Virus record (IMG/VR): IMGVR_UViG_3300034107_000235
Coordinates: 1 to 30,359 of that record
Reading direction: 5' to 3' (one strand)
Origin: a virus
Length of the DNA stretch: 30,359 bases
Shown here: in pieces, positions 7,984-29,141 of the stretch
How the letters are laid out: the number at the start of each line of letters is the position of its first letter
Numbering within the stretch: position 1 is the stretch's first letter
The notes under the pieces: model-generated
Told to the model about the DNA's origin: nothing
The model's input: only the letters and a program-made list of their open reading frames with translations
Database searches by the model: none
Program-made: the position numbers and the translations under genes

Positions 7984-10666
7984 ACGGTTACAGATCCTCA
8001 TCGACGCTGATGCCAGTGGTGCTGTGCGTGAGTTTAAAAAGGTTGGCAACACTGCTGATCGTGAGCTCGGCAAGGCCACTAAGTCAATGGACCGTATGAG
8101 CGCAAAGCTAACTAGCTTTGGTGCTGGTGCAGTTGTTGGCGCTGCGGCACTCGGTGCCGGTTTGGCAATGTTTGCTAAGGAGGCTGCGGCGGCTGAGACA
8201 CAGCAGTTGAAGCTGACTAACTCGATCAAGAACAGTACTGCTGCGTTCCCTGGTAACGGCAAAGCTTTGCGTGATCAGGCATCAGCTTTGATGAAAGTCA
8301 CTGTGGCTGATGATGATGCGATTGTTTCGGCGCAGGCTTTGCTTGTGCAGTTCGGGCGCACATCTTCAGAGACAGAAAAACTGACACCTCTGGTTGTTGA
8401 CTTGTCTCGCAAGATGGGCGTGGATCTCGACGCAGCTGCAAAGGCAGTGGGGAAGAGTTCCGAGGGTTCATCGGGTGCGTTGAAGAAGATGGGTATCGAG
8501 GTCGAATCGCTTGGTCTTGGTTCAACCGCTACTGAAGACACGATTGCTGCGCTTGCCGCTTCCGTAGGGGGATTTGCAGAATCTGAAGGGCAAACATTCG
8601 CAGGCCAACTCGACATCATGAAAAACAAGTTTGGTGAGCTCAAAGAGTCTGTCGGCAAAGGCGTACTCGATGTTGTAAACCCGATCCTTGGTATCGGTGC
8701 TGCAGCTGGCGAGATCAACCCGAAGGTCGGTGAAACTGCAGGCAAGCTTGCAACTATGGGCGCTATCGGTGCGGGCCTTGTTGGTACTTTGTCTGTTGGC
8801 ACTGGTGCTGTGATGAAGATGCGTGACCAGTTCACACAGGTATCGATGGTTGGTGGCACTGCGACACGTTCGCTCACAAATGTTGGCAAGGCCGCTGCAG
8901 GTATCGGTGCTATTGGTGCAGCCGTTGTTGTGTATCAGTTGGCTAAGGCTTTGGATGAGGCAAGCGTCAACGCTGCAAAGGTTGAGGCAGGGCTTGCTGC
9001 GATCAGTTTGCAAGCCGCAGAAGGTAGCGGTGTGTCTGCGAAGTCGTTTGCTGATCTTGCTAAAAGCACAGACGGTGCAATCGACAAACTCTCAGATTTT
9101 GGTGATCGAACACTCGACGTTTTTAACCTGAGCAAAACGTCTGGCACGTTCAAACTTGATGGTGAAGTCATCCAGATCGATAGTGCTACCGCTGCGATCA
9201 ACAAGCTTAAAGCTGCGGGCGACAACAAAGGTTTGCAAGGTGCTTTGGATCTGCTTAGCGGTGCTGATCTTGGTACTGGTGGCGGCGTTGAAATGGAACA
9301 GCAGCGCAAGAAGTTTGTTGAGTTCTTAGGCAATACGGAAAAAGGTTTGAGCGATAGCGGTAAGGCAGCGAAGGCCAACGCTGAGCAGCTTGATGATGTG
9401 ACTGGTTCGATGGAATCTTTGACGGAAGCCTCAAAGATTTACAACGGCCAGTTGGCGTTTATTGCTGCAACACAGAAACTTGGCGCTGATCGTGCAGCTG
9501 CGTACAACAAAGCTATTGAGGACACCTCGACGCTTGATGATCAGGCGACTGCAGCGTTCGGAATGAACACTGCGTACAAAGGGCTGTTTGACACTTTGAA
9601 CGATCTGCCTAAAGAGTTTGATGTGATCAAGGCTGCGTTGGGTGATTACACGGACGAGCAGAACAAAGCTGTTGAGGCTGTAATCAGTTTTGGTGACACT
9701 GCTGGGAGTGTCCTTGAGCAGGCTGTTTCAACTGGTGGTGATCCACGCATGCTTGGCGGTATCTTCCGTAATCGCCTTGAAGAGGTGTTGAAGAATGCTG
9801 GTATCCCACCTGAGCAGATCGCTGAGTACATCGGTCTTGCCGGTTTGGGCGAGTTCCAGATTGAAGCGGCTGTCCGGTTGAGTTTGTCTGAAGAGGAGAA
9901 GCAGAAGTTTTTGAATCTGCTTGCGTTGTTCGAGGCAACGTCGCAAGATTTCGCTCCTGAGATTCTCCCGAAGATCAACGAGTTGTTTCTTGCTGGCGAG
10001 TTCCAGAAGTTGAATGCGTTGATCGCAGCATCACAACCGGGTGTTACTCAGACAGAGTTGTTCTTGTATCTGACTGCGTACCCTGATCTTGCTGGGCCTT
10101 TAGCTGGGACGATTGATGCGTTGCAAGCGCAAGCCGATGCCGATGCGGTTGCTTTGCGGGCAACGATGTTCCCTCCTGGTTCAATGATTGCTGATCTGAT
10201 GGCGAACTTGCAGGCCGAAGCGAACGCTGCGCCACCTGTGGTGATTCCGTTCCAACTTCCGGGCGCACCGGGTAGTGGTCTTCCGACGTTGCCGAACCGT
10301 GGCAATCTGCCAGCCGGTATCAACCCGAGTGATCTGCCTGTTCAGCAGGCCGAGATCGACACTGGTTTGGATTTCAACTTCAACGGGATTATCGGGCGTG
10401 CTATCGGTGGGCCTGTTGGCGGTGGTCGTACTTACATGGTGAATGAGCGTGGCCGTGAGTTGTTCACGCCTAACTCGAACGGGTTTATTATGAACGCTGG
10501 CGATGCACAGTCTTTGATCCAGGGTGTGTCGCAGCTGGTTAGCAGTGGGGGTGGTGGCGGTATGACTAACAACATTACGATCAACGAAACAAGTTCACCA
10601 CGCCAAACAGCGCTAGAAGTCATCAGAGCTAACAAGGCTTCACTGTTCCTAGCTGGTGCACTGTGA
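7970..10666 (+). CDS. Tail tape measure protein
   Basis: This 898-residue protein sets tail length and is threaded inside the tube. Its start is a GTG at 7970 (MALLERLQILIDADAS), overlapping the end of the chaperone frameshift. It has an N-terminal helical region, a glycine and alanine-rich hydrophobic segment at about 51-69 (GAGAVVGAAALGAGLAMF), a second hydrophobic region at about 250-280, long alanine-rich helices, and a C-terminal GGPVGGGRTYMVNERGRELFTPNSNGF block that is a recurrent closing motif of phage tape measures. By the common scaling of about 0.15 nm per residue, the tail would be near 135 nm, which is an estimate. It is followed by GTGA overlap with the next gene. Confidence 0.93.
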   Translation: MALLERLQILIDADASGAVREFKKVGNTADRELGKATKSMDRMSAKLTSFGAGAVVGAAALGAGLAMFAKEAAAAETQQLKLTNSIKNSTAAFPGNGKALRDQASALMKVTVADDDAIVSAQALLVQFGRTSSETEKLTPLVVDLSRKMGVDLDAAAKAVGKSSEGSSGALKKMGIEVESLGLGSTATEDTIAALAASVGGFAESEGQTFAGQLDIMKNKFGELKESVGKGVLDVVNPILGIGAAAGEINPKVGETAGKLATMGAIGAGLVGTLSVGTGAVMKMRDQFTQVSMVGGTATRSLTNVGKAAAGIGAIGAAVVVYQLAKALDEASVNAAKVEAGLAAISLQAAEGSGVSAKSFADLAKSTDGAIDKLSDFGDRTLDVFNLSKTSGTFKLDGEVIQIDSATAAINKLKAAGDNKGLQGALDLLSGADLGTGGGVEMEQQRKKFVEFLGNTEKGLSDSGKAAKANAEQLDDVTGSMESLTEASKIYNGQLAFIAATQKLGADRAAAYNKAIEDTSTLDDQATAAFGMNTAYKGLFDTLNDLPKEFDVIKAALGDYTDEQNKAVEAVISFGDTAGSVLEQAVSTGGDPRMLGGIFRNRLEEVLKNAGIPPEQIAEYIGLAGLGEFQIEAAVRLSLSEEEKQKFLNLLALFEATSQDFAPEILPKINELFLAGEFQKLNALIAASQPGVTQTELFLYLTAYPDLAGPLAGTIDALQAQADADAVALRATMFPPGSMIADLMANLQAEANAAPPVVIPFQLPGAPGSGLPTLPNRGNLPAGINPSDLPVQQAEIDTGLDFNFNGIIGRAIGGPVGGGRTYMVNERGRELFTPNSNGFIMNAGDAQSLIQGVSQLVSSGGGGGMTNNITINETSSPRQTALEVIRANKASLFLAGAL

Positions 10667-11115
10667 CCGCATCCTCAATCACGTTCGATGCCGTGGCACT
10701 GGGCAACAGTGCGATCAAGATAAGAAACATTTGGACGTTCTGGCAACCAGCACAACTCGAAGCATCAAACATCAAACTCGCTGGTGTCACTGGTATGACC
10801 GCACGCAAACCACTGGTGCAACCAACGACACACAGCCTCGAGCTCATCATCTCCGGCGAAGTGTCCACAACTGGCACACCAGACACCGACTACCCTGCAC
10901 GGCTCAAAACAAACCTTGCGTACATCGCAACGTACTTCACGAACATCCCAGCAACAACTGACGGCACACGCACAGCGATACTCACACTGCCATCAGGGGC
11001 AACGCTCACAGGCCCAGTACACATTCTCGGCCTGACTATCGGTGAGGTTGTACCAACCGCAAAGTGGGCGCTTGCAGTGCTCGAGGTTTCAGTCCCAGCA
11101 GGTGTTCTCGCATGA
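10663..11115 (+). CDS. Tail tip protein, probably distal tail-like
   Basis: This 150-residue, beta-rich protein starts at a GTG that overlaps the tape measure stop (GTGA). The sequence has alternating strand-like segments (SITFDAVALGNSAIKI, HSLELIISGEVSTTGTPDTDYPARLKTNLAYIATYF, LTGPVHILGLTIGEVVPTAKWALAVLEVSVPAG). The position immediately after the tape measure is where the distal tail protein or its equivalent is encoded in siphoviruses. No firm motif is visible, so the assignment rests on order. Base composition on the plus strand changes here from G/T-rich to C/A-rich. Confidence 0.45.
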   Translation: MTASSITFDAVALGNSAIKIRNIWTFWQPAQLEASNIKLAGVTGMTARKPLVQPTTHSLELIISGEVSTTGTPDTDYPARLKTNLAYIATYFTNIPATTDGTRTAILTLPSGATLTGPVHILGLTIGEVVPTAKWALAVLEVSVPAGVLA

Positions 11116-11136
11116 TCCAAAAAGAAGGTTAACCAC

Positions 11137-11535
11137 ATGGCAAACGTCGTTTACCCAACAGGCATGAAAGCCTTCGCAGATGCAGACATTGACTATTTGG
11201 TTGATGACATCAAGATCGTCGCAATGAGCAGCACCTACGTTTACTCTGCTGCGCATGATTTCCGTGACGATCTGTCAGGTGTTGTCGCAACCTCGGCAAA
11301 CCTCTCATCAAAGACTTCAACAGGTGGTGTGCTCGACGCAGCAGACCCAGTGTTTACATCGGTGACAGGTTCAACCATTGTGAGCTTTGCGATGTTCAAA
11401 GACACTGGCACTACTTCAACATCACGCCTGATCTGTTTTTGGAACGCCACTGCAGCTGGCGCAGCGTTCGCTGTGATCCCTGACGGCACCAACATCACGC
11501 TCACACTTTCAGCAACAGGTCTCATCGCTATCTGA
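11137..11535 (+). CDS. Small phage structural protein, tail tip region
   Basis: This 132-residue protein contains a block found in many phage minor tail proteins: DDIKIVAMSSTYVYSAAHDFRDDLSGVVATSANLSSKTSTGGVLDAADPVFTSVTGSTI, then FAMFKDTGTTSTSRLICFWNAT. The pattern (short beta strands, acidic turn, GVxDAAD) is recognisable as a common virion-associated fold of unknown exact role. A good AGAAGG ribosome site lies at about 11123-11128. Its stop overlaps the ATG of the next gene by one base (TGATG). It is probably part of the tail tip or baseplate. Confidence 0.6.
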   Translation: MANVVYPTGMKAFADADIDYLVDDIKIVAMSSTYVYSAAHDFRDDLSGVVATSANLSSKTSTGGVLDAADPVFTSVTGSTIVSFAMFKDTGTTSTSRLICFWNATAAGAAFAVIPDGTNITLTLSATGLIAI

Positions 11536-13865
11536 TGGCGCAAACCCTTGCGTTTCCTTTCCTGACACCACGAGCGCTTGGCGCTCCTGCACCGCTTGCG
11601 TTCACAGCAGTGCAAGGAAACAAGACCGCTGCGATCCCTTTCATAAACCGTGCGCCATCAGTGCGGGGGTTCTTCGCTGACACCACACCACCAGCACCAG
11701 CACCGAACGCTGCACCGGTGCCTGCTATTAGCGTGCAACTGTTTGACACAAACAACGCTTCTGCGATCTCAACGCCAACGACCATTCTTGGTTCTCGCAG
11801 GTGGCAAGACAGCCTGGACTCTCTGAGCCAAGGCAAGATCAGTATGCCTTATGCGACTGCAGCGGACATCAGCGCAACATCAGGTATGACACTAGGCCGG
11901 CACCTAAGGTTCACCCTCGGCACAACGCTGGCGTGGACCGGTCGCATTGTCTCCACGCAGGTTGTTGAAACAGACATCAAGGACTCTGACAAGGTGTTTG
12001 AAGTTACCTGTTTGGACATACGGTCTATTCTTGATCGTGCAACCGTGTACCCACAGAATGGTCTAGGTGCTGTCCCTGCATCGGATTTGCGGACGTTCGC
12101 ATGGCACTCCGCTGAAGGTTCCACAACTGGTTGGGCTGCAGCAACACCACGCTCATACGCAATGTCTTTGGCGTGGCGCACACCTAACACACAGCCTGAA
12201 TGGTTTGAACCTTGGCTACCGCCTGACGGTTGGCCTATCGGGTCAACCACACCAATACAAGGTTTTGTTGGCAGGATCGCAGCATCAGATGTGCGCACAA
12301 CCCTGTTCAAACGCACGTTCACTGTCGCATCAGATGGCCTGTATGACCTTTGGTTAGCAATGTATTCGGGTGGTTCCATTTACGTTGACGGCATCCAGTT
12401 GTACGACTCGAAAGAATATTCTGACTCTTGGCGTTCACCGTGGCGGGCAATGATCGAACTAACAGCAGGCGCTCATGTGTTCGCTGTTGAACTGAAACAC
12501 ATTGCAGGCCCAGACCTTTCAGCCCTACCTGGCACCCTTGCAACTGTGAACCGTGAACATTGCTTTGCGCTGAATCTGCACAAGATTGAATCACCTGAAA
12601 CAGTCCTGTCAGGTTCAACACTGGTGATGGCTTCTGATGACAGCTGGTATGCGTTGGACAATCCTGCTGTGGTCCCTAACCCGACAGCGGGCACAGTGCT
12701 CATCACGCTGATCAATGAAGCTATTGCACGTAATTCTTTGCCAGCAGGGTTCGCTGTTGGGTTTAGTGCCACAGTGGATTCTGATGGGCTGGGTTGGCCT
12801 GCGTTGGATGTGTTTACTGTGCGTGTTGGTGACACTATTTGGGATGTTTGCCAGCAGTTGCAGAATCTTGGTTATGAGTTCGGGATGCGTGCCGCTGGGC
12901 TAACACTTGATGCGTTTGCTTTTGGGCGTGGCGGTACTAGCACTGCAGGCATTCAGGCTGGTGTGAATTTGCAGGCTGTGACTCGTGATGAGCGGCCACC
13001 GCAACCAAACACTCTTGTGTGTACCTATTCGGGCGGGCAGTTTGTTTCAACTGATGCGGCACAGGTTGCCCTGTTTGGGATTATTGAGGCAGCGTTTCAG
13101 ATAGCTGATGTGCGTGACCTTGCATCAGCACAAACAGTTGCAGCGGCACAACTCGAACTGTTCGCAGCACGCACAGAGTCGTTGTCTGTGTCTGCTATCT
13201 ACGCTGGCGATCAACCGTATTTGAACTACCGGATTGGAGACAGCATCGTTTTGTATAAGAACGGTGCTGGGGCTGAGAACGTGCGCTTGAAAACGTTGGA
13301 TGTGTCCGAGGATTCAAACGGGTTTGTAGGACTCTCGTTTGAACTTGCATCAGCATCCGAACAGGACGCTGACAGGATCGCTGCAATGTTGAAGCGTGGG
13401 GTGCCAGGGGCGTTGGCTGGTTTGTCTAAGGTTGCGACACCTTCACGCTCGTTGGCTGATGGTGGAACCAGTGGCCTTGTGCAGCTGTACCGTGTTGACG
13501 GTTTCTCACAGGGTGAACTAGTTGACTACACAGAAGATCCTTTGAGGGGTCAGTCAACAGCGGAGGTTTTCCAACGGCCTGTACGTCTCACCTATATCAA
13601 ACTGTCGCAGCTAGGCACGCTCACTTCTGCCATTGAAGTGATCATGTTGAAGAACGGTGCGCAGTTGGATGTCAGTATGTATATCGCTGCAGGTGAGTTC
13701 ACATCCACCTACCTGACAATGGACCACACGTTTCAGGCCAACGATCAGTTGGCTTTCCGTTTGGTTGATAAGGGTGTGGGTGGTGGGCTGTTGCAGGTGC
13801 AGGTGTGGGCAGCGTTCGCTTCTGGTGAGGATGTGCAACCTGTTGGCCGTCTGATATGGGAATGA
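11535..13865 (+). CDS. Large tail tip/hub protein with putative carbohydrate-binding insert
   Basis: This 776-residue protein is probably the tail hub or tail-associated protein that connects the tip to receptor-binding parts. The first 55 residues are proline and alanine rich. Residues about 60-170 hold SRRWQDSLDSLSQGKISMPYATAADISATSGMTLGRHLRF, VFEVTCLDIRSILDRA, the usual hub-type fold entry. Between about 190 and 360 is an insert with LFKRTFTVASDGLYDLWLAMYSGGSIYVDGIQLYD and MIELTAGAHVFAVELKH, which resembles a PA14 or carbohydrate-binding jelly roll. The rest carries hub-like segments such as TIWDVCQQLQNLGYEFGMRAAG and NYRIGDSIVL. The insert would be consistent with sugar binding on the cell surface. 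Confidence 0.68.
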   Translation: MAQTLAFPFLTPRALGAPAPLAFTAVQGNKTAAIPFINRAPSVRGFFADTTPPAPAPNAAPVPAISVQLFDTNNASAISTPTTILGSRRWQDSLDSLSQGKISMPYATAADISATSGMTLGRHLRFTLGTTLAWTGRIVSTQVVETDIKDSDKVFEVTCLDIRSILDRATVYPQNGLGAVPASDLRTFAWHSAEGSTTGWAAATPRSYAMSLAWRTPNTQPEWFEPWLPPDGWPIGSTTPIQGFVGRIAASDVRTTLFKRTFTVASDGLYDLWLAMYSGGSIYVDGIQLYDSKEYSDSWRSPWRAMIELTAGAHVFAVELKHIAGPDLSALPGTLATVNREHCFALNLHKIESPETVLSGSTLVMASDDSWYALDNPAVVPNPTAGTVLITLINEAIARNSLPAGFAVGFSATVDSDGLGWPALDVFTVRVGDTIWDVCQQLQNLGYEFGMRAAGLTLDAFAFGRGGTSTAGIQAGVNLQAVTRDERPPQPNTLVCTYSGGQFVSTDAAQVALFGIIEAAFQIADVRDLASAQTVAAAQLELFAARTESLSVSAIYAGDQPYLNYRIGDSIVLYKNGAGAENVRLKTLDVSEDSNGFVGLSFELASASEQDADRIAAMLKRGVPGALAGLSKVATPSRSLADGGTSGLVQLYRVDGFSQGELVDYTEDPLRGQSTAEVFQRPVRLTYIKLSQLGTLTSAIEVIMLKNGAQLDVSMYIAAGEFTSTYLTMDHTFQANDQLAFRLVDKGVGGGLLQVQVWAAFASGEDVQPVGRLIWE

Positions 13866-13871
13866 TCTGAG

Positions 13872-14765
13872 ATGGCGTATAGACAAACGGCAACTGTTGC
13901 TGTTCAATCTAGTCCAACCCCTATCTTGTATAGCAATGGTTCGATCTGGGTTGGCAACGATGCGTCTGCTTCGGTTAGCAGGATTGACCCAGCCACAAAC
14001 ACTGTTATAGCAACGATCACTAGTGCAGGTGTTCTTACTGATCCAACGTCATTGGCTGAAGATCAGTTTGGAAACGTGTGGGTTGCTTGCCGAAACTCTA
14101 CACAAGGAAGTGTGTCACGCATTGATCCTGCAACAAACACAGTCACCGCATCTCTTTACACTGGAAACGGCATCAGGCCCATTGGTATTGGTATGGGCGC
14201 TGGTGAAATGTGGGTAAGTGAAAATGTTAGTACAGGTGTATATGCGCGATTTGATACAACAACACTTGCCCAAACCTACATTGCTGCAGTTGCTGGTGCC
14301 GGCTACAACTTCGTGGATGACGGCACAAACGTCTGGTTTGATAACGGGGGGGGTTGCAACAAGATTGATCCAGCAACAAACACTGTCACAGCAGTGACTG
14401 CTGGCATCATTGGCGGGCTGGGCTTTTTGCATTATGCGTTTGGTTACATCTGGCGTGTGTGTGATCGAGGGCTTCAACGTGTTGACCCGACCACGAACGC
14501 TTTGACCCGTGTAATAGTGTCCGGGCAACAGTGCTATGGCGTCACTGATGATGGCACTGATCTGATTGTTTCTGATATTGGCGGCGAAATCTATGTGGTT
14601 GACCCAACATCGTTCACTGTGAAACAAACGCTCACGAGTACTAGCTATTATTGGGGTACTACTTTTGGTGGCGGGTCCATCTGGGCAAATGCACGCAATT
14701 CAGGTCAGTGCAAGAGGTTCACTCCGCTTCCTGTGGGTTGGGTGCGTGGGCATGCGTGGGGGTGA
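13872..14765 (+). CDS. Beta-propeller (YVTN/NHL-like) tail protein, candidate receptor binder
   Basis: This 297-residue protein is made of repeated blades. The unit RIDPATNTV recurs with variations (RIDPATNTV twice, KIDPATNTV, RVDPTTNAL, VVDPTSFTV), each preceded by a strand such as GSIWVGND, GNVWVACRN, GEMWVSEN, TNVWFDNG, GYIWRVCD, GSIWANAR. About six blades can be counted, the arrangement seen in streptogramin-lyase-like propellers. It lies between the hub gene and the endolysin gene, so a virion role in recognising the host surface is likely, but an enzyme cannot be ruled out. A run of eight G (14346-14353) lies in the coding sequence and could vary by slippage. Confidence 0.7.
   Translation: MAYRQTATVAVQSSPTPILYSNGSIWVGNDASASVSRIDPATNTVIATITSAGVLTDPTSLAEDQFGNVWVACRNSTQGSVSRIDPATNTVTASLYTGNGIRPIGIGMGAGEMWVSENVSTGVYARFDTTTLAQTYIAAVAGAGYNFVDDGTNVWFDNGGGCNKIDPATNTVTAVTAGIIGGLGFLHYAFGYIWRVCDRGLQRVDPTTNALTRVIVSGQQCYGVTDDGTDLIVSDIGGEIYVVDPTSFTVKQTLTSTSYYWGTTFGGGSIWANARNSGQCKRFTPLPVGWVRGHAWG
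14346..14353 (+). repeat. G8 homopolymer tract in the propeller gene
   Basis: Eight consecutive G residues encode part of DNGGGCNKI in the fourth blade. Gain or loss of one G would shift the frame in the middle of the protein. It could therefore act as a contingency tract, or it could simply be a chance run. Confidence 0.8.
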
Positions 14766-14768
14766 AAG

Positions 14769-15617
14769 ATGAGAGACCTTGGTATTGCTGACAGACTCCG
14801 CAACGCTGGTTTGGTGGTTGAGGAACAACCAGGTTGGCAAACTCGTGGCTCAGCTTTGTTTGCTCCAAGGGCTGTGATGTGGCACCACACCGCAAGCGCT
14901 ATGGGCAAGAACCTGCCAAGCCTGAACATTGTGACCAACGGCAGACCAGACCTTGCGGGCCCGTTGTGCCATGTGCTTACGGGTCGGGATAACTGCAACG
15001 TGGTGATTGCAGCGGGCAGGGCTAATCATGCTGGTGCTGGCAGGTGGAACGGTAGCAGTGTCGGCAACAGCGCCTACTGGGGTATCGAGGTAGAGAACGT
15101 CGGCACTATCGCTGAACCGTGGCGACCAGACCAACTGCAAAACGTCGCCGAAGTAACTGCAGCGTTGATTGGTTATAACGCTGGATTGGTTGCTGATTGC
15201 TGTATGCATAAAGAGTGGGCACCAACACGCAAGATCGACATGCACACCATCTCTGGCAATGAGATGCGTGCTCGTGTCATGCAACTCTGCATCGGCACAC
15301 CAGCACCACCACCAGAACCAGCACCACCCACACCAGCTGTTGTTGACCTTGCAGCAATCGCAGCAGGCATAGCAGCAGCATCCAAACAGATCGTCAAACA
15401 GGGCACCAAAGGTGATGCAGCGAAATGGGCGCAAGCCCTACTCAACAACAAGCTTGATGGGCCAGACCTGATAGTTGACGGGAACTTTGGGCCAGCATCA
15501 GTAGCGGCAGCTAAACGCTTTCAAACAAACGTCAAACGGTTCTTCAAACTCTCATCCAAACAGATGCCAGTAGACGGAATCATTGGGCCATCAACCTGGT
15601 ATTGGCTAACAAGATGA
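14769..15617 (+). CDS. Endolysin: N-acetylmuramoyl-L-alanine amidase with peptidoglycan-binding domain
   Basis: This 282-residue lysin cleaves the bond between muramic acid and the stem peptide. The N-terminal domain (about 20-170) is amidase_2 type: the zinc-binding His pattern is visible as VMWHHTAS (H39/H40), NHAGAG (H87, motif RANHAG) and CCMHKEWAPTRKIDMH (H147, with K153/D157-type residues). A proline linker (PAPPPEPAPPTPAVV, about 179-193) leads to a C-terminal peptidoglycan-binding domain with LLNNKLDGPDLIVDGNFGPASVAAAKRFQ and VDGIIGPSTWYWL, the repeat of the PG_binding_1 fold. No signal peptide is seen, so a holin is needed for export, and one follows immediately. Confidence 0.92.
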   Translation: MRDLGIADRLRNAGLVVEEQPGWQTRGSALFAPRAVMWHHTASAMGKNLPSLNIVTNGRPDLAGPLCHVLTGRDNCNVVIAAGRANHAGAGRWNGSSVGNSAYWGIEVENVGTIAEPWRPDQLQNVAEVTAALIGYNAGLVADCCMHKEWAPTRKIDMHTISGNEMRARVMQLCIGTPAPPPEPAPPTPAVVDLAAIAAGIAAASKQIVKQGTKGDAAKWAQALLNNKLDGPDLIVDGNFGPASVAAAKRFQTNVKRFFKLSSKQMPVDGIIGPSTWYWLTR

Positions 15618-18588: not shown

Positions 18589-18801
18589 TAAGTTGTCTCC
18601 TGGTCGGGATATGGAACAAGCCCACGCTGATGCGTGGGCTTCACCATTTACCCTAACAACTTCGGGCCTGCCGATGCACGCATACCTTCTCAAAAAGAAA
18701 TTTGAGAAATGCCACACCAAACCTTGCAACTCGTGCAACAATGGTTGCACGCCACCGAAACGGGGCGTACCACCACACCACCACAAAGGACAAACAACAC
18801 G
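18589..18801. promoter_or_regulatory. Divergent intergenic region with three inverted repeats
   Basis: This 213-nt region separates the minus-strand lipoprotein gene from the plus-strand early genes. It holds AAGCCCACGC/GCGTGGGCTT (18618-18627 and 18632-18641, 4-nt loop), TTCTCAAA/TTTGAGAA (18687-18694 and 18701-18708, 6-nt spacing) and CGTGCAAC/GTTGCACG (18732-18739 and 18744-18751, 4-nt spacing), the last with a nearby extra TTGCAAC. The short dyads could be operators. I did not find convincing -35/-10 sequences. Confidence 0.5.
18771..18796 (+). repeat. ACC-rich leader with AAAGGACAA, copy 1
   Basis: The stretch CACCACACCACCACAAAGGACAA just before the 18802 gene is nearly the same as that before the 19739 gene; AAAGGACAA also precedes the gene at 2520. 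It contains the ribosome binding site, so it looks like a reused translation-start leader. Confidence 0.6.
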
Positions 18802-22609: not shown

Positions 22610-22923
22610 TGAGCACCAAAAAATCATCAGCACGCACCATGCAAGCAATCAAAGCAACGGTGTACCAAGAGGTAGAAGAGATCGACTTTTACCACACGAA
22701 CGCAAAGATGGTCGATGTCAGGGTGCGTGGCGATGACGTAGGCCATATGAGTTTCAGTATCGGCAAAGCGGTGTTCTTCCTCGAGGGGACCGGCACCAAG
22801 CTGCAAAAATGCCAAGCAATCCGAGACATCGCACAAGCACTCACCACCGCAGCGGACCTGCTCGAAGCAGAAATCGCTGCGGCCGAAACGTACTTCTCAG
22901 AGCAACTGCTGTTAGGTGACTGA
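22609..22923 (+). CDS. Small protein, paralogue of the 19739 gene product
   Basis: This 104-residue protein contains NAKMVDVRVRGDDVGHMSFSIGKAVFFLEGTGTKLQKCQAIRDIAQALTTAADLLEAE. It shares with the 19739 product the order KM-V, GH, F-x-x-G-x-A-x-FF-x-EG and a terminal helix. It starts at the TGATG overlap. Function is unknown. The two copies at different places in the early region suggest that they have separate targets or dosage roles. Confidence 0.62.
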   Translation: MSTKKSSARTMQAIKATVYQEVEEIDFYHTNAKMVDVRVRGDDVGHMSFSIGKAVFFLEGTGTKLQKCQAIRDIAQALTTAADLLEAEIAAAETYFSEQLLLGD

Positions 22924-23347
22924 CCTCATGCGCCTACCAGTACGGGCTGAGATGATCGACCACCTAACCATCATCGTCGAAGACTGCAACAAACAGGCCC
23001 ACTGGCGTAAACACGCTGCGTGCCGTGGCATGGACACCAACCTGTTCTACCCAGAACCGGGATACAACGGGCACAGAAAACAACGGCAAGCGCAAGCGGT
23101 ATGCGCCGGATGCCCTGTACAAGCCGAATGCTTACAAGCGCTTGGTCGTTACAGTGGTGGGATTGTCGGCGGGCAAACCACAGCACAACGCACCAAAGGC
23201 CACATGATCAAAAAGAACCTCGACCTACTCCAACTACGGGATCACATCATCAACACCGAACCGTTGGAGATCGCAGCGCACGATCTTGGCATCAGCGCAC
23301 AATCAGTAAAAAAGCACATCCACCGCCACCCCGAAGGAGTCGCATGA
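22916..23347 (+). CDS. WhiB-family Fe-S regulator (first copy)
   Basis: This 143-residue protein carries the WhiB cluster: AACRGMDTNLFYPE (C36), AVCAGCPVQAECLQAL (C63, C66, C72) and GGIVGGQTTAQR in place of the usual G-[VI]-W-G-G turn. The four Cys should bind a [4Fe-4S] cluster; WhiB proteins bind the host sigma factor and change transcription. A basic C-terminal region with IAAHDLGISAQSVKKHIHRHPEG could contact DNA. The start is uncertain: GTG 22916 overlaps the previous gene by 8 nt, and ATG 22928 is an alternative. The tryptophan of the turn is lacking, which is a deviation from most members. Confidence 0.82.
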   Translation: MTDLMRLPVRAEMIDHLTIIVEDCNKQAHWRKHAACRGMDTNLFYPEPGYNGHRKQRQAQAVCAGCPVQAECLQALGRYSGGIVGGQTTAQRTKGHMIKKNLDLLQLRDHIINTEPLEIAAHDLGISAQSVKKHIHRHPEGVA

Positions 23348-23487
23348 AAGATCAAAAGCTCGAGCACTGCCACCAATGCGGCAAACCTGTCACACCCGGC
23401 ATCGATCACGACACAGCGAACATCAACGGCATCCGTTGGTGGTGCCCAGAACACTGCCCACAATGCCGAGAGTCCCCTAACAGATGA
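23344..23487 (+). CDS. 47-residue zinc-ribbon protein
   Basis: This short frame overlaps the WhiB stop (ATGA) and the next start (ATGA). It encodes MKDQKLEHCHQCGKPVTPG with C9 and C12, then WWCPEHCPQCRESPNR with C34, C38 and C41. The paired CxxC-type groups suggest one bound zinc ion. Position between two WhiB genes suggests a regulatory partner or assembly helper, which is inference only. Confidence 0.6.
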   Translation: MKDQKLEHCHQCGKPVTPGIDHDTANINGIRWWCPEHCPQCRESPNR

Positions 23488-23915
23488 CACCTGAAGAATG
23501 GGACATCGCAGCATGCAGATACCACCCAAAAGAACTGTTCTTCCCAGACCGAAACAACTTCGGTCAAGTATGGGACCGGGCCCGCAACATCTGCCAAGAA
23601 TGCCCAGTCAAAGCCGCATGCCTCCAAGACGGGCAACACGAGGTGTTCGGCATGTGGGGAGGGCTTAGCCCAGCAGAAAGGGGATACGGTCGCTCAAACA
23701 ACGCAGCACCAATGAGTACCGAACGCATCGCAGCCTTGCTCGAACACGTTGGCAAACCCATGACAGTCAACCAGGTATACCTAGCCTTACATCCGCATTA
23801 CACGAAACACGCCACACGCAACGCCTTAACCAGACTCGCACAAGGCGGCATCGCCACCCGCACCTCCAACGTCCAACCTGAACCAGACACCTACCACTGG
23901 AACCACCACACATGA
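23484..23915 (+). CDS. WhiB-family regulator fused to winged-helix-like domain (second copy)
   Basis: This 143-residue protein has the WhiB pattern AACRYHPKELFFP (C11), NICQECPVKAACL (C37, C40, C46) and VFGMWGGLSPAERGYG (GMWGG at 56-60), the conserved turn. The rest differs from ordinary WhiB proteins: residues about 79-127 (STERIAALLEHVGKPMTVNQVYLALHPHYTKHATRNALTRLAQGGIATRTS) look like a winged helix, with three helices and a short wing. It may thus bind both the sigma factor and DNA. ATGA overlaps tie it to the zinc ribbon gene and the PrimPol gene. The fusion is based on my reading and would need structure prediction. Confidence 0.78.
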   Translation: MTPEEWDIAACRYHPKELFFPDRNNFGQVWDRARNICQECPVKAACLQDGQHEVFGMWGGLSPAERGYGRSNNAAPMSTERIAALLEHVGKPMTVNQVYLALHPHYTKHATRNALTRLAQGGIATRTSNVQPEPDTYHWNHHT

Positions 23916-25990
23916 CCACAGACCCGCACAACACAGCCAACGAATACGCACAACGAGGATGGCGAGTAGTGCCCATTGTGCCAGGGGAGAAACGACCAGC
24001 GCTCAACCAGTGGCAACACCAAGCAACAACGGACACCACAACCATTGACCGATGGTGGATGGGTGAACACTCCGGCTGCGGAGTAGGCATCGCAACAGGA
24101 GAACAATCAGGCATCTGGGTCTTAGACATCGATGACCGAGACGCACTCTACGAACTGGAGAAGGAACACGGTGAGCTACCACCAACGCTCACATCGATTA
24201 CAGGTAGCGGCGGTGAGCATCAGGTGTACCTGTGGCCGGCAGATGGGCGCACCATCCACAACAGCGCCAGCGGGTTCATACAAGGCATAGATGTCAGGGG
24301 CGAAGGCGGCCAGATCGTCGCACCACCAACCATCCACCCCAACGGCAACCCATACGAATGGGACGAACAATGCACAGAAATCGCTGCAGCACCCGAATGG
24401 CTACTAGCCCTCATCTGCGACAAAGACCCACAACCCACCACCACACAACCCACCCCGAGCACCACCACCACAGACAGACCAGGAGACCTATGGGCACAGC
24501 AGACCGACTGGGCATACATCCTCATACCCGACGGCTGGCAACTCTCACACACCGACAACAACGGCGAACGCTACTGGGTACGACCCGGCAAAGAACCACG
24601 AGACGGCATCAGCGCAACCACAGGGCACACAGCAAACGACAACCTGCACGTGTTCACAAGCTCAGTACCCAACCTCAAAGCAGAAGAAACATACACAAAG
24701 CTCGGATACCTCGCAGCCATACACCACAACCACGACCACGCTGCAGCGGCACGAGCACTAGCAGCACAAGGATTCACCACACCACAACCAGACCTCAACA
24801 TCCTCAACCACCTCACCACAACCGCCAGCGGTGAACCAGATGCGAACCCGCTTGCCCCATACCTCATCGACTGGCAAAGCTTCTGGACCACAGACCACAC
24901 CGAAACAGAATGGCTACTCGAACCCCTCTTCGCAAAAGGCAGGGCACACGCAATCTACGCCGGAGCCAAAGTCGGCAAAAGCTTTGTCACACTCGCAGCA
25001 TGCGCAGCCCTAGCAACCGGCCAACCATTCCTACGCAAACCCCAAACAAACCCACAACACGTACTCTACGTCGATTACGAGATGACACCAACAGACCTAT
25101 ACGACCGCCTCACAGAATTCGGATACGAATCCACAATCTTCGACCACCTCCACTACGCACAACTACCAGTCATCGCACCCCTCGACACCTCACAAGGCGG
25201 CATCGCACTCTGCCAAGCCGCCCACGCAGTCGGCGCAGAAATAGTAATCATCGACACCACAGGCAGAGCAGTACAAGGCGAAGAAAACGACGCAGGCACC
25301 TACCAAGACTTCTACCGCCACACAGGCATGCAACTCAAACGCATGGGCATCACATGGGCACGCCTCGACCACGCAGGCAAAGACACCACCAGAGGCCAAC
25401 GAGGATCATCAGCAAAGAACGACGACGTAGACATAGTCGTCAACCTCACACGCACACCAACCGGCATCACATGGACAGCAACCCACAGGCGCATGTCCTG
25501 GTACCCAGAACAATCAGACATCACCATCGCAGAACTAGACGACCAAGCCACCTTCACAATGGAAGGCGGCAACCTCGAACAGTTCGAGCTCCACATCTTC
25601 GACCTCTCAGACTGGCTCGACGCTGAAGGAATACCAGCCAACGCACCCATCCGAGAATGCTGGGCACACACCAAAACAAACGGACCCGCAGGCACCCTCA
25701 AAAAGGATGTACAAGCGGCAGTCAGGTACCGCAAATCGGCACAGTATTCGCTGCGAAAAACAGGGCGGGACAAAGCTCGGGACACGCCTCCGGACAAAAC
25801 TGCGGGACAGACTGCGGGACACTCTGGGACAGAACCCGAAACCCATACAAACAAAGGCGGGACAGAGAGCGGGACACTGCGGGACACTATTGAGCAGGCA
25901 CAGCGGGACACTCTGTCACCCCGTAGGGGGGACAGAGTTCACGGCCCACAAACCGAACACCCAAACCAACCCACATACGAAGAGTTCTAA
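23912..25990 (+). CDS. Primase-polymerase/helicase replication protein
   Basis: This 692-residue protein is probably the phage replication enzyme. Residues about 8-165 form a bifunctional primase-polymerase (AEP) domain: GWRVVPIVPGEKRPAL, WVLDIDDRDAL (D72, D74), GEHQVYLW (H103) and GIDVRGEGGQIVAPPTIHPNG. A Thr/Pro linker (about 172-190) leads to a RecA-like helicase/ATPase: Walker A AGAKVGKSF (350-358), LYVDYEM and Walker B AEIVIIDTTGR (442-452), then RLDHAGKDTTRGQRGSSA. The pairing recalls plasmid and phage RepA-type initiators. The last 90 residues are low in complexity because the DNA there carries the GGGACA repeats. The ATG overlaps the upstream stop (ATGA). Confidence 0.86.
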   Translation: MTTDPHNTANEYAQRGWRVVPIVPGEKRPALNQWQHQATTDTTTIDRWWMGEHSGCGVGIATGEQSGIWVLDIDDRDALYELEKEHGELPPTLTSITGSGGEHQVYLWPADGRTIHNSASGFIQGIDVRGEGGQIVAPPTIHPNGNPYEWDEQCTEIAAAPEWLLALICDKDPQPTTTQPTPSTTTTDRPGDLWAQQTDWAYILIPDGWQLSHTDNNGERYWVRPGKEPRDGISATTGHTANDNLHVFTSSVPNLKAEETYTKLGYLAAIHHNHDHAAAARALAAQGFTTPQPDLNILNHLTTTASGEPDANPLAPYLIDWQSFWTTDHTETEWLLEPLFAKGRAHAIYAGAKVGKSFVTLAACAALATGQPFLRKPQTNPQHVLYVDYEMTPTDLYDRLTEFGYESTIFDHLHYAQLPVIAPLDTSQGGIALCQAAHAVGAEIVIIDTTGRAVQGEENDAGTYQDFYRHTGMQLKRMGITWARLDHAGKDTTRGQRGSSAKNDDVDIVVNLTRTPTGITWTATHRRMSWYPEQSDITIAELDDQATFTMEGGNLEQFELHIFDLSDWLDAEGIPANAPIRECWAHTKTNGPAGTLKKDVQAAVRYRKSAQYSLRKTGRDKARDTPPDKTAGQTAGHSGTEPETHTNKGGTESGTLRDTIEQAQRDTLSPRRGDRVHGPQTEHPNQPTYEEF
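25766..25937 (+). repeat. GGGACA iteron-like array with terminal hairpin (candidate replication origin)
   Basis: Eleven copies of (C/G/T)GGGACA or CCGGACA start at 25766, 25778, 25790, 25803, 25815, 25825, 25858, 25870, 25880, 25904 and 25928. The spacings are 12, 12, 13, 12, 10, 33, 12, 10, 24 and 24, close to one or two helical turns. The copies fall in all three codon phases of the host gene, so the selection is on DNA and not on protein. The array makes a local G-rich patch in a G-poor region. It ends in CTCTGTCACCCC (25911-25922) facing GGGGGGACAGAG (25926-25937), a 12-bp stem with one mismatch that includes the last copy. Confidence 0.75.
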
Positions 25991-26002
25991 GGACACCAAA
26001 CC

Positions 26003-26248
26003 ATGCCCAACTGTCAATGCCAATACCGAGGTGACCTACTCACACAAGGACACCGAGACCACCACCGCAACTGGGAACAAACACAACCCACAACCAGACA
26101 CCCAACCACCTCCACCACAACAGCAATCGAGATCACCCAACTCATCATCGCCATCGACCAACTCACCGCAGCCCTACACGGCGGCCCACCACCACCGCTC
26201 ACACCAGGAGCACAAGCAATCATCGCCAACCACAGGAGCCAACAGTGA
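26003..26248 (+). CDS. Small early protein, unknown
   Basis: This 81-residue protein starts at ATG 26003 with AAGGA at 25990-25994. It begins MPNCQCQYRGDLLTQGHRDHHRNW, with two Cys and several His, and continues with a Thr-rich stretch, a helix (IEITQLIIAIDQLTAALHGG) and a Pro-rich end. A GTGA overlap couples it to the next gene. No family is recognised. The base composition is extremely C/A-rich, as in its neighbours. Confidence 0.5.
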   Translation: MPNCQCQYRGDLLTQGHRDHHRNWEQTQPTTRHPTTSTTTAIEITQLIIAIDQLTAALHGGPPPPLTPGAQAIIANHRSQQ

Positions 26249-26769
26249 AAGACCTCGACCAGCTCACAGCCCTAGCCAACACCATCACACGCATCCTCGA
26301 AGCCGGCGCACAAGCACTCATCGAACAACGCAGTGGTTTCCCAGCCGGTGGCACAGGCGGCACACCAAGCTCAACCAGTGACCGCACAGGCAGGCTCGCA
26401 ACAACACGAGCAGACAAAGGCCCAGAACGATCAGACCAAGACTACGAACGAACCATACAGATCCTCATTGAGCTCGAGGACATCCTCAACCGAGCACGAC
26501 CACCCAAACGCACAACCATCCACATCCAAGCAACCACCACACAACACGACGATGGCTGCAGATCATGCGCACGAGTAGGCACATGGACCGCACGAACCAA
26601 GAACAACCCCATGTGCCGCACATGCAACGAGCTCATCCTCCGCATACAAATGCAACACAACATCACCCTCGAGCTACCACCAACCACACTCGTCGACCGC
26701 CAACGCCAAGGCCGCCGCATCACCACACGAGAAATCAACCAAGCACTCCACGAAAATAAAACACGGTGA
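26245..26769 (+). CDS. Putative zinc-finger protein
   Basis: This 174-residue protein starts at a GTG with a CAGGAG site about 7 nt upstream, overlapping the TGA before it. After an N-terminal helix (DLDQLTALANTITRILEAGAQALIEQ) and a Gly/Ser-rich linker there is a second helix (YERTIQILIELEDILNRAR). Residues 105-127 are CRSCARVGTWTARTKNNPMCRTC, a CxxC-x15-CxxC pattern expected to hold zinc. The end is basic (VDRQRQGRRITTREINQAL). It may bind DNA or join a replication complex; the function is not known. Confidence 0.6.
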   Translation: MKDLDQLTALANTITRILEAGAQALIEQRSGFPAGGTGGTPSSTSDRTGRLATTRADKGPERSDQDYERTIQILIELEDILNRARPPKRTTIHIQATTTQHDDGCRSCARVGTWTARTKNNPMCRTCNELILRIQMQHNITLELPPTTLVDRQRQGRRITTREINQALHENKTR

Positions 26770-26845
26770 TAACCTTGACGATCGCCACCACCACATGTAA
26801 CGCTTACGGCAGTCTCACCACACCCAGCCTAGAAGCAGGACAGTG
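26770..26845. other. Short intergenic region with weak TTGACG element
   Basis: This 76-nt gap contains TTGACG at 26775-26780 and TGTAAC at 26796-26801, 15 nt apart. The spacing is short and the second hexamer is poor, so a promoter here is only possible. AGCAGGACAG before 26846 serves as ribosome site for the HNH gene. Confidence 0.25.
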
Positions 26846-27121
26846 ATGGCATCCAAAGGCCGCAGCACTAGGCAGTGGAAGACCATCAGCCTTACCGTCT
26901 ACGCAGAAGAAACACATTGCTGGCTATGCGGACGAGCAGTAGACCACACCATCCAACCAAGAACACGATGGGCACACAGTGTCGATCACATCATCCCAAT
27001 CAGCCAAGGCGGCGCACCATACGACCGTGCCAACCTCCGCCTCGCACACCACGGCTGCAACAGCCGACGCTCCAACAACCGAGCGCAACCACAACGACCA
27101 GGCGCAACACGCCAATGGTAA
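26846..27121 (+). CDS. HNH endonuclease
   Basis: This 91-residue protein has an HNH fold: CWLCGRAVD (C25, C28), HSVDHIIPISQGG (H44, D47, H48) and NLRLAHHGCNSRR (N63, H69, C71, N72), the order of a Cys-framed HNH nuclease. HNH proteins next to terminase genes commonly act with TerL in genome cutting at the packaging site. A GTG start at 26843 is possible, but ATG 26846 is better placed to the AGCAGGACAG ribosome site. Its stop is followed by the DnaA-box region. Confidence 0.85.
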   Translation: MASKGRSTRQWKTISLTVYAEETHCWLCGRAVDHTIQPRTRWAHSVDHIIPISQGGAPYDRANLRLAHHGCNSRRSNNRAQPQRPGATRQW

Positions 27122-27355
27122 AACCTCACACACAGTGAGATAGTTATCCACAGATAACCTGCCCACCCCACGAAAGTTATCCACAGAAACCTGTGAACTT
27201 TTTTTAGGGGTGGGTGCTTGAGTATCCCGCTGCTTTTACAGGCCGATTTTTCTCTCCACAATTTCTCAACGTTATCCACAGATTTCTGGGGATAACCTCG
27301 GAAGCTTAAAAAGGTTGTCCACAGGGCCTGTGGATTGTTTCGGAAGGTGGTCACG
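27122..27355. promoter_or_regulatory. DnaA-box cluster, origin-like intergenic region
   Basis: This 234-nt non-coding stretch contains TTATCCACA at 27144-27152, 27177-27185 and 27272-27280, and TTGTCCACA at 27315-27323, all in the same orientation. TTATNCACA is the E. coli DnaA box and TTGTCCACA is the usual actinobacterial form. Weak reverse sites occur at 27287-27295 and 27329-27337. Small dyads overlap boxes (GTTATC-CACA-GATAAC at 27143-27158 and TCCACAG-GGC-CTGTGGA at 27318-27334). A T-rich stretch (27231-27270) between boxes could unwind. Confidence 0.82.
27173..27205 (+). terminator. Hairpin with T7 tract inside the DnaA-box region
   Basis: CACAG (27182-27186) pairs with CTGTG (27191-27195) and AAAGTT (27173-27178) with AACTTT (27196-27201), with a 3-nt bulge on the left arm and a T7 tract at 27199-27205. 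It is a plausible end for early transcripts. DnaA box 2 (27177-27185) overlaps the left arm, so bound DnaA and termination may interfere. Confidence 0.6.
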
Positions 27356-27622
27356 TTGAGTGAGATTCTTGATGCTGCGCAAAGCGGTGACCGTCGTGCG
27401 ACCCTTGAGGCTTTGCGTGACCAGATCGCTTTGGTGATCGACGCACCTTCAACAACGGGTGCGGAGTTGGCTTCGCTTGCACGGCAGATGATTGTGGTTA
27501 CTGAGATCCTTGAGGGGATCTCTGATGGGCAGGCGGTGAATCTTGTTAATGACCTCGCAGCAAAACGAGCTTCTCGGAAGCCAGGTGCCAACACATCTGG
27601 TCGTGCCGCCAGCGGCGGTTAG
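27356..27622 (+). CDS. Terminase small subunit
   Basis: This 88-residue protein lies directly before TerL. LSEILDAAQSGDRRATLEALRDQIALVIDAPSTTGAELASLARQMIVVTEILEGISDGQ matches the short helical TerS type of actinophages (leading SEILDAAQSGDRxAxLEALRDxIA and LARQMxxVxxEI). The TTG at 27356 is chosen because GGAAGG stands about 8-14 nt before it; the frame is open up to 27335, where another TTG exists. TerS binds phage DNA and loads TerL. It overlaps the TerL start by 74 nt. Confidence 0.75.
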   Translation: MSEILDAAQSGDRRATLEALRDQIALVIDAPSTTGAELASLARQMIVVTEILEGISDGQAVNLVNDLAAKRASRKPGANTSGRAASGG

Positions 27623-28979
27623 TTCTGCTGGTGCGGAAGCTGTCGAGCTTGCTGCGCTTGCCGGTTTGTTTCTTGATCCGTGGCAAGAGTTGGTGTTGCA
27701 GTCGGCTTTGTCGGAGCGTGCGGATGGGCGGTGGGCTGCGCTCGAGGTTGGTCTTGTGGTTCCACGCCAGAATGGCAAGGGTTCGATACTTGAGGCTCGT
27801 GAGCTTGCAGGTATGTTCTTGCTGGGCGAAGAGCTCATCTTGCATAGCGCTCATGAGTTTAAGACTTCGCAAGAGGCGTTCCGCAGGGTTCGTTACCTGA
27901 TAGAAAATTGTGATGACCTTGACCGGATGGTGAAGCGGGTTCGCACTTCGAATGGTGAAGAGGCCATTGAGTGTAAGAACGGTTCGAGGTTGCGGTTTGT
28001 TGCTAGGTCTTCTGGGTCTGGTCGTGGGTTCACTGGTGATTGCATCATTTTTGATGAGGCTTACAAGCTGAGTGCGGCGATGATGGCAGCGTTGTTGCCT
28101 ACTTTGTCTGCTCGACCTAATCCGCAACTCTGGTATACGACGAGTTCTCCGCCTGAGATTGACGAGTTTTCGGAGCAGATCCGGCGCACGAAGGTGCGTG
28201 CGATGTCTGAGAACCCTGGCAGGTTGTGTTGGGTTGAGTGGTCTTCTGAGTTGAACGCTGATCCTGCTGATCCTGCGGTGTGGGCTGCGGCGAATCCTGC
28301 GATGGGTCGTAGGATCGATCCGGAGTTTGTTGAGGCTGAGCGGCAGACGATGCCAGCGGAGGCGTTTGCTGTTGAGCGTCTTGGTGTGTGGAAGTCGCAG
28401 AGTTTGAGTGCGAAGATCCCGTTGCATGCTTGGGAAGCTGTGCAGGTTGATGTGTCTCCTGGCACTGATGGTGTTGTGTTCGGTGTGGATTTGCCGCCTG
28501 ATCGTTCGTCGGTTTCGGTTGCTGCGTGTTCGCCAGCTGGCGAGTACGGGTTTGCTGTTGAGCTTGCGGATCGTCGGCCCGGTACTGATTGGCTGATCCC
28601 ACGTTGCATCGAGCTTGCTGATCGTTACCCTGGCAGCGTGTTTGTCATTGATGGTGTTGGGCCGTCGGCTGGGTTCATTACCGATCTGCAGAATCTTGGA
28701 TTGACCGTGCGGACCACTTCGGCTCGTGAGTATTCCGAGGCTTGCACAAGGCTGTTTGATGCTGTGATGGCTAAGAGTGTTACGCACACTGGCCAGTCTG
28801 AGCTTGTCGCTGCGGTGATGGGCGCTAATACTCGCAAGCTTGGCGATTCGTGGGCATGGTCGAGAACGTCGAGCAGTGTGGATATTTCACCGCTGGTTGC
28901 TGTGACGTTAGCTTTGTGGGGTTGCGCTACTGCTCGTGAGGCTCCTGAGCCTACGCTTCCGCAGGTGTTTGCTTACTAG
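27549..28979 (+). CDS. Terminase large subunit
   Basis: This 476-residue protein is the packaging motor and nuclease. The ATPase part has VPRQNGKGS (residues 71-79) as Walker A, CIIFDEAYKL (165-174) as Walker B and YTTSSPP as coupling motif (about 196-202). The nuclease part has FGVDLPPDRSSVSVA (D314) and VFVIDGVGP (D368), metal-binding acids of the RNase H-like fold. The length fits actinophage TerL. ATG 27549 is chosen; a TTG at 27543 is in frame. The HNH gene and TerS upstream fit a cos or HNH-assisted cutting system. Confidence 0.93.
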   Translation: MTSQQNELLGSQVPTHLVVPPAAVSSAGAEAVELAALAGLFLDPWQELVLQSALSERADGRWAALEVGLVVPRQNGKGSILEARELAGMFLLGEELILHSAHEFKTSQEAFRRVRYLIENCDDLDRMVKRVRTSNGEEAIECKNGSRLRFVARSSGSGRGFTGDCIIFDEAYKLSAAMMAALLPTLSARPNPQLWYTTSSPPEIDEFSEQIRRTKVRAMSENPGRLCWVEWSSELNADPADPAVWAAANPAMGRRIDPEFVEAERQTMPAEAFAVERLGVWKSQSLSAKIPLHAWEAVQVDVSPGTDGVVFGVDLPPDRSSVSVAACSPAGEYGFAVELADRRPGTDWLIPRCIELADRYPGSVFVIDGVGPSAGFITDLQNLGLTVRTTSAREYSEACTRLFDAVMAKSVTHTGQSELVAAVMGANTRKLGDSWAWSRTSSSVDISPLVAVTLALWGCATAREAPEPTLPQVFAY

Positions 28980-28994
28980 GAAAGGGCGGTGCCA

Positions 28995-29141
28995 ATGTTT
29001 AAAGATACTCTTGCGACCGTTCTTGAGATCGCTGGGATTATGGCCGTGTGTGTTGCAGTGTTTTTGGTGTCACCGATCATGGCCCTTGGTGTTGCTGGTG
29101 TTGCGATGTTCGTGGTGGGCTTTATGATTGACGGTACCTGA
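28995..29141 (+). CDS. 48-residue membrane protein between TerL and portal
   Basis: This short frame starts at ATG 28995 with AAAGGG at about 28981-28985 and ends in TGA overlapping the portal ATG. It encodes MFKDTLATVLEIAGIMAVCVAVFLVSPIMALGVAGVAMFVVGFMIDGT, two hydrophobic segments (about 10-26 and 28-44). The good ribosome site and the overlap make it likely real. Its function is unknown. Confidence 0.6.
   Translation: MFKDTLATVLEIAGIMAVCVAVFLVSPIMALGVAGVAMFVVGFMIDGT

What the first reader, a model, noticed from the sequence alone, without database searches (positions are those of the whole stretch)
24000..29000. Abrupt flip of strand composition at the DnaA-box region
Plus-strand bases to the left are C/A-rich and to the right G/T-rich, though genes on both sides are in the same orientation. 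Counts by hand: 24421-24480 has C32 G5 A23 T0; 28261-28320 has G22 C15 T15 A8. The opposite flip appears between 9601-9660 (G19 C11) and 10801-10860 (C23 G12), with a mosaic zone to about 15 kb. Half a genome from 27.2 kb is about 12 kb. The polarity (G-rich leading strand) is that expected of bidirectional replication starting near 27.2 kb.
Basis: partly seen in the sequence, partly recalled or inferred. Interest (0 to 1): 0.8.

Follow-up and report, generated by a model that had tools for sequence, protein, structure and literature searches.

The report
Strand-bias switch at phage genome end
In this small virus of actinobacteria the base make-up of the DNA strands flips abruptly where the packaged genome's two ends join, most likely because copying starts there and runs both ways; the same switch recurs at the genome ends of many related phages that rely on the host's DNA polymerase.

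Summary
The flip is real and extreme. The keto (G+T) share of four-fold synonymous sites falls to 4-11% just left of 27.2 kb and is 83% just right of it, with genes on one strand throughout; the change-point is 27,188-27,199. The site is also the packaged genome's end (cos): independent relatives' contigs stop within about 20 bp of each other there, between HNH nuclease and terminase genes. The flip follows position, not gene lineage: a relative with a different terminase (38% identity) has the same composition there. It does not need the DnaA boxes: relatives without any TTRTCCACA still flip. The opposite switch is diffuse, with an extremum at 15.2 kb, not at half a genome. Best reading: bidirectional host-replisome copying from an origin at or beside cos. 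In a 20-genome panel of actinophages, cos holds the largest or near-largest jump in 14 of 16 genomes lacking PolA and 0 of 4 encoding it (Fisher 0.003; relatives not independent). Near the site synonymous changes stay within A/C on the left and within G/T on the right, even at low divergence, which plain deamination does not explain. Known kind of signal, in a new and unusually strong variant. No origin was tested experimentally.

The parts
27188..27199 (.). keto/amino change-point (best estimate 27,191)
   Evidence: likelihood change-point; cumulative minimum
27224..27258 (.). cos region (virion genome ends); left-end motif TTTTTCTCTCC at 27,248-27,258
   Evidence: contigs of relatives start at window-equivalent 27,224-27,244; seven contigs of the TerL-B group start at one identical base, 12 nt before TCTCTCTAGGT; HNH gene | cos | terS order as in annotated cos phages
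27144..27152 (+). exact DnaA-box consensus TTATCCACA
27177..27185 (+). exact DnaA-box consensus TTATCCACA
27272..27280 (+). exact DnaA-box consensus TTATCCACA
   Evidence: order-2 Markov expectation for the whole window is 0.13 copies
27287..27295 (-). one-mismatch DnaA box TTATCCCCA
27315..27323 (+). TTGTCCACA (one mismatch)
26003..27121 (+). most amino-rich block: genes 26003-26248, 26245-26769 and HNH endonuclease 26843-27121; four-fold keto 4-11%
23912..25990 (+). Prim-Pol (PF09250) + AAA_25 replication protein; four-fold keto 16%
27335..27622 (+). terminase small subunit (phrog_1459)
   Evidence: four-fold keto 72%
27543..28979 (+). terminase large subunit; four-fold keto 83%
10663..15617 (.). 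mosaic zone of the opposite, diffuse switch; cumulative maximum at 15,219

Best explanation
The window is a circularly joined actinophage genome. Its virion ends (cos) lie at about 27.23 kb, and a bidirectional theta origin lies at or within about 100-200 bp of cos. After the ends anneal, the host replisome, with the phage Prim-Pol/AAA protein, moves forks in both directions. The strand made continuously in each arm (5'->3' away from cos) has become G/T-rich and its complement A/C-rich. The bias is strongest next to the start and fades with distance. It reverses diffusely on the far side because forks meet at varying places. Shown: flip, polarity, coincidence with the genome end, decay, recurrence, independence from gene lineage and from DnaA boxes. 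Inferred: that replication begins there, which protein initiates it, and that replication causes the bias.
For: Polarity and shape as expected for an origin. Same-strand genes on both sides rule out gene orientation as the cause. Flip at the same place in relatives G001, G002, G004, G005, L005, L009 and L066. A swapped TerL with 38% identity has the same composition. Three exact DnaA boxes within 137 bp, with copy number and spacing varying among close relatives while the 9-mer stays. No family A DNA polymerase in the window, so host polymerase is the likely copier. In 20 actinophage genomes the jump at cos ranks in the top 0.1-1.4% of positions in 14 of 16 without PolA and in 0 of 4 with PolA (Fisher 0.003, or 0.015 with related genomes collapsed by judgement). 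Jumps are larger where no tyrosine integrase was found (0.155-0.334) than where one was (-0.042 to 0.184), as expected if lytic replication builds the bias.
Against: No origin has been mapped. DnaA boxes are absent in relatives that flip equally, so the initiator is unknown. Origin and cos coincide, so an end-specific cause is not excluded. Galaxy and phiT45-1 lack PolA and show no jump. The PolA and integrase associations were noticed after the fact, on genomes chosen by terminase similarity, with shared ancestry, and the integrase comparison is confounded with G+C content. The far-side switch (15.2 kb) is not opposite the origin.
Confidence: 0.6

Rival explanations
1. The bias is anchored to the virion ends themselves, not to a sequence-specific origin: the annealed, nicked cos junction primes strand-displacing synthesis outward from its 3' ends, or the ends are otherwise exposed as single strands, so the bias centres on cos in any phage that uses this route.
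For: Flip within about 100 bp of cos in most jump-positive phages whatever the sequence there; no shared DnaA boxes; both arms fade from cos. Outward synthesis from the two cos 3' ends would give the observed polarity.
Against: Cos phages with their own PolA, and lambda, HK97, P2 and sk1, show no jump at cos. 5'->3' resection of ends would give the opposite polarity (reasoning, not tested).
Confidence: 0.2
2. Early and late gene blocks of different ancestry or codon preference happen to meet at 27.2 kb.
For: Late structural genes lie to the right and early replication genes to the left; the far-side extremum lies at a gene-block boundary near the endolysin.
Against: Graded, not uniform, bias within each block. 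A replaced TerL takes the same composition. A/C versus G/T at third positions is not a tRNA class, since A/G and C/T share tRNAs (general knowledge). PolA phages have the same early/late junction at cos without a jump.
Confidence: 0.06
3. Transcription-coupled mutation causes the skew.
For: Coding strands are often G/T-skewed; the right arm fits.
Against: All genes next to the site are on +, so both sides should have the same sign; the left is opposite and stronger. Pahexavirus Y3Z is keto-rich on + across a change of gene strand.
Confidence: 0.04
4. The linear genome replicates from its ends by protein-primed strand displacement, as in phi29-like viruses, which predicts the same polarity and gradient.
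For: Sign and gradient match.
Against: Terminase, HNH and cos ends; a Prim-Pol/helicase-type protein; no polymerase or terminal protein was recognised in the proteins searched, though only family A was searched genome-wide.
Confidence: 0.02

Closest known systems
Replichore GC/AT skew of bacterial chromosomes and large phages (for example the huge phages of PMC7162821)
   Same: Sign change at a presumed origin, G/T-rich leading strand, diffuse reversal on the far side. That paper reports about 30% of its phage genomes with skew indicative of bidirectional and 30% of unidirectional replication.
   Different: A 30-kb cos phage; bias far stronger next to the site (four-fold keto 4% against 83%), fading within a few kb, with the flip at the packaging end; changes held within the A/C or G/T class.
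DnaA-box origins (oriC type)
   Same: Cluster of exact TTATCCACA at the flip in this clade.
   Different: Boxes absent in relatives with the same flip; no clear AT-rich unwinding element (G+C 46-48% against 54%).
HNH-cos-terS packaging junction of HK97-like actinophages (Fulbright, SoilAssassin, Mbo4, BaileyBlu)
   Same: Gene order HNH | end | terS-terL; contigs of relatives end there; Mbo4 carries an annotated 3' overhang.
   Different: Only phages without their own PolA show the composition switch.
Pahexavirus (Cutibacterium phages)
   Same: Composition jump at cos (0.42 to 0.70) and synonymous variation mostly G/T.
   Different: Keto-rich over nearly the whole + strand with the amino-rich part confined to the last 2.5 kb, more like unidirectional copying.
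Corynephage BFK20 gp43, a phage Prim-Pol protein (PMC4538821)
   Same: A Prim-Pol clade replication protein in a phage of actinobacteria.
   Different: Not compared by sequence here; no origin data found for this clade.

Membership tests
Bidirectional replication skew | strand composition changes sign at one site with the G/T-rich strand running away on both sides | tested here: met
Bidirectional replication skew | opposite change about half a genome away | tested here: inconclusive
   diffuse; extremum 15.2 kb, arms 18.4 and 12.0 kb; about 54-61% of genome length from cos in relatives
Bidirectional replication skew | independent of gene orientation and gene lineage | tested here: met
Bidirectional replication skew | replication actually starts there | not testable with these tools
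   needs infection-time read depth or origin mapping
DnaA-dependent origin | clustered DnaA boxes | tested here: met
   three exact, two one-mismatch; expected 0.13 exact per window
DnaA-dependent origin | boxes conserved in relatives that share the skew | tested here: not met
   absent near cos in G002, L066 and G004
DnaA-dependent origin | adjacent AT-rich unwinding element | tested here: inconclusive
   only mildly AT-rich, 46-48% G+C
cos packaging site | fixed genome ends at one site | tested here: met
   contig ends of independent relatives
cos packaging site | HNH and terminase genes flank the end | tested here: met
   compare
cos packaging site | cohesive overhang demonstrated | not testable with these tools
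   needs virion end sequencing

The most novel reading that the evidence does not exclude
Near cos, strand composition is held by selection on the amino/keto class (A or C on one strand, G or T on the other), not merely by asymmetric deamination. Synonymous differences stay within the class even where two genomes differ at no more than 3 of 40 four-fold sites (left A/C 25 of 40; right G/T 31 of 70; control 13 of 68 within class), and class-crossing transversions are reduced as well as transitions (Fisher 0.010 and 0.020). Possible gains: lagging-strand templates without hairpins, or dense priming motifs for the Prim-Pol protein. Together with the cos-centred jump in 14 of 16 PolA-less actinophage genomes, this would define a replication start zone at the genome end common to host-polymerase-dependent actinophages.
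Probability: 0.35. Interest if true: 0.75.

Novelty: new variant of a known kind. Interest (0 to 1): 0.55.

Why it matters
Origins are unknown for most actinophages. If the cos-centred switch marks them, origin position and replication mode could be read from sequence for many genomes, and a rule (host polymerase: start at cos; own PolA: no switch) becomes testable in laboratory phages such as Fulbright, SoilAssassin and phiC31. The within-class substitution pattern bears on an old question, whether strand skew is mutational or selected, in a system where the bias is near its limit.

Tried and rejected
Priming-motif idea: with synonymous-codon shuffles GTG is modestly enriched on the G/T strand in both arms (z about 4), but so are CTG, TGC, GGT and others, so no single motif stands out; left open. 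Exchangeability ratios mix divergence levels, so the local low-divergence test was used instead. Singleton polarity counts may reflect saturation and are not relied on alone. In Pahexavirus at low local divergence G/T and transitions are equal (10 and 10) with few events, so it supports the class constraint only weakly. BaileyBlu, phiC31, SansAfet, Puppers, Galaxy, lambda, HK97, P2 and sk1 show no jump at cos. No host could be assigned: the terminase search of bacterial genomes gave only distant hits. Literature searches found no report of a skew switch at cos in actinophages, within the held open-access library only.

Full report
Observation. All hand counts are exact. Along the + strand the (G+T)-(A+C) walk has its minimum at 27,191 and its maximum at 15,219, with a circular amplitude well beyond block shuffles (1,959 against at most 1,099). 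The change-point is 27,188-27,199. At four-fold synonymous sites the keto share runs 45, 35, 39, 19, 16, 5, 4, 11% toward the site from the left (genes from 21.4 to 27.1 kb, some small genes omitted), then 72 and 83% (terS, TerL), 67% (portal), 74, 50 and about 50-70% further right. Genes around the site are all on +. The opposite change is diffuse: 10.66-11.5 kb is amino-rich, 11.5-14.8 kb keto-rich, and the lasting change is at 15.2 kb.

What the site is. It lies between an HNH endonuclease gene and terS-terL, the usual position of cos in HK97-like actinophages (annotated in Fulbright, SoilAssassin and Mbo4, the last with a 3' overhang). Contigs of relatives stop there from both sides: type-A starts at window-equivalent 27,224, 27,226, 27,238, 27,238 and 27,244; in the TerL-B group seven contigs (L110, L111, L112, L118, L120, L125, G002) start at one identical base. 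A sequence like TCTCTCTAG or TTTTTCTCTCC follows the end in lineages with different terminases. L005, L007 and L010 align across the join of the window's own ends, so the window closes into a circle.

DnaA boxes. Three exact TTATCCACA lie within 137 bp, with TTGTCCACA and TTATCCCCA nearby; 0.13 exact copies are expected in the window. Close relatives keep the 9-mer while copy number and spacing vary. But G002 and L066, which share about 86-92% nucleotide identity with the aligned left arm, carry a different HNH-cos-terminase segment without any such box and flip at the same place, as does the more distant G004. The boxes travel with the cos segment; they are not needed for the flip.

Position, not lineage. 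TerL of G002 is 38% identical to that of the window and has 85% keto at four-fold sites against 83%. TerL of BaileyBlu, 41% identical, has 41% keto at third positions. Composition therefore follows the place in the genome and the kind of phage.

How general. I compared keto share in the 1.5 kb on either side of cos with the same contrast at every other position of each genome. The jump at cos ranks in the top 0.1-1.4% (1.5-kb or 3-kb windows) in the window, G001, G002, G004, G005, Fulbright, SoilAssassin, Mbo4, Pahexavirus Y3Z, LC001 (start shifted by 830 bp to the terminase side), CLED96, Anatole, Constance and FirstPlacePfu; the maximum lies within about 130 bp of cos in most, though in SoilAssassin and Anatole a slightly larger 1.5-kb jump lies elsewhere and in LC001 it is about 340 bp away. 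It is absent in BaileyBlu, phiC31, SansAfet, Puppers, Galaxy and phiT45-1, and in lambda, HK97, P2 and sk1. Of the 20 actinophage records, exactly BaileyBlu, phiC31, SansAfet and Puppers encode family A DNA polymerase: 14 of 16 without and 0 of 4 with show the jump (Fisher 0.003; 0.015 for 8 of 10 lineages, collapsed by my judgement). Jumps are larger where no tyrosine integrase was found among the PolA-less genomes (Mann-Whitney 0.002, not phylogenetically corrected and confounded with G+C). These associations were found after looking and need an independent sample.

Substitution pattern. Comparing relatives at four-fold sites, differences left of the site are mostly A/C, and right of it G/T is the commonest class, whereas in the protease and capsid genes transitions are commonest. 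This holds in local stretches with at most 2 or 3 differences per 40 sites (left A/C 14 of 21 and 25 of 40; TerL G/T 21 of 46 and 31 of 70; control within-class 7 of 41 and 13 of 68). Class-crossing transversions are reduced too (Fisher 0.010 left, 0.020 right). A bias only in C->T and A->G would not do that. Either selection holds the amino/keto class, or an unusual mutational asymmetry affects all class-crossing changes. Local differences shared by several pairs are counted once, but recombination and shared ancestry remain. Pahexavirus shows the same excess of G/T overall (225 of 357 two-state sites), but not clearly at the lowest divergence.

Mechanism. The favoured account is a bidirectional origin at or beside cos, used by the host replisome with the phage Prim-Pol/AAA protein (PF09250, PF13481). 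It explains polarity, place, decay, diffuse reversal and recurrence. It is inferred: no replication data exist here for this phage. Because cos and the presumed origin coincide, synthesis primed at the annealed cos junction is the main rival. Transcription, gene-block codon choice and protein-primed replication fit worse, for the reasons given under the rivals.

Comparison and verdict. Skew marking bidirectional replication is known in bacteria and large phages (PMC7162821). What is unusual here is the strength, the coincidence with the packaging end, the recurrence in phages without their own PolA, and the within-class substitution pattern. I file it as a new variant of a known kind.

Noticed in passing
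25811-25921: Four imperfect 22-nt direct repeats containing GCGGGACACT inside the 3' part of the Prim-Pol gene; TGTCCC/GTCCCG words are strongly over-represented on the minus strand of the left arm. Possible iterons, but the composition does not flip there.
   Followed up: partly
L069 (Pahexavirus Y3Z) 1-29160: Keto-rich + strand over 0-26.6 kb regardless of gene strand, then amino-rich in the last 2.5 kb, where no genes are annotated, up to cos; looks like mostly unidirectional copying.
   Followed up: partly
26839-28960: The HNH-cos-terS-TerL segment is exchanged as a unit between close relatives (window type against G002/L066 type).
   Followed up: partly
18172-18786: Minus-strand ORF with transglycosylase/tape-measure-like PHROG matches, the likeliest gene on the minus strand.
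   Followed up: no
22916-23347 and 23484-23915: Two WhiB-family regulators (PF02467) close together, pointing to an actinobacterial host.
   Followed up: no
L067 11392-11424 and L065 11863-11871: TTATCCACA on the minus strand inside or next to the 3' part of the Prim-Pol homologue in two distant relatives, not at the flip.
   Followed up: no
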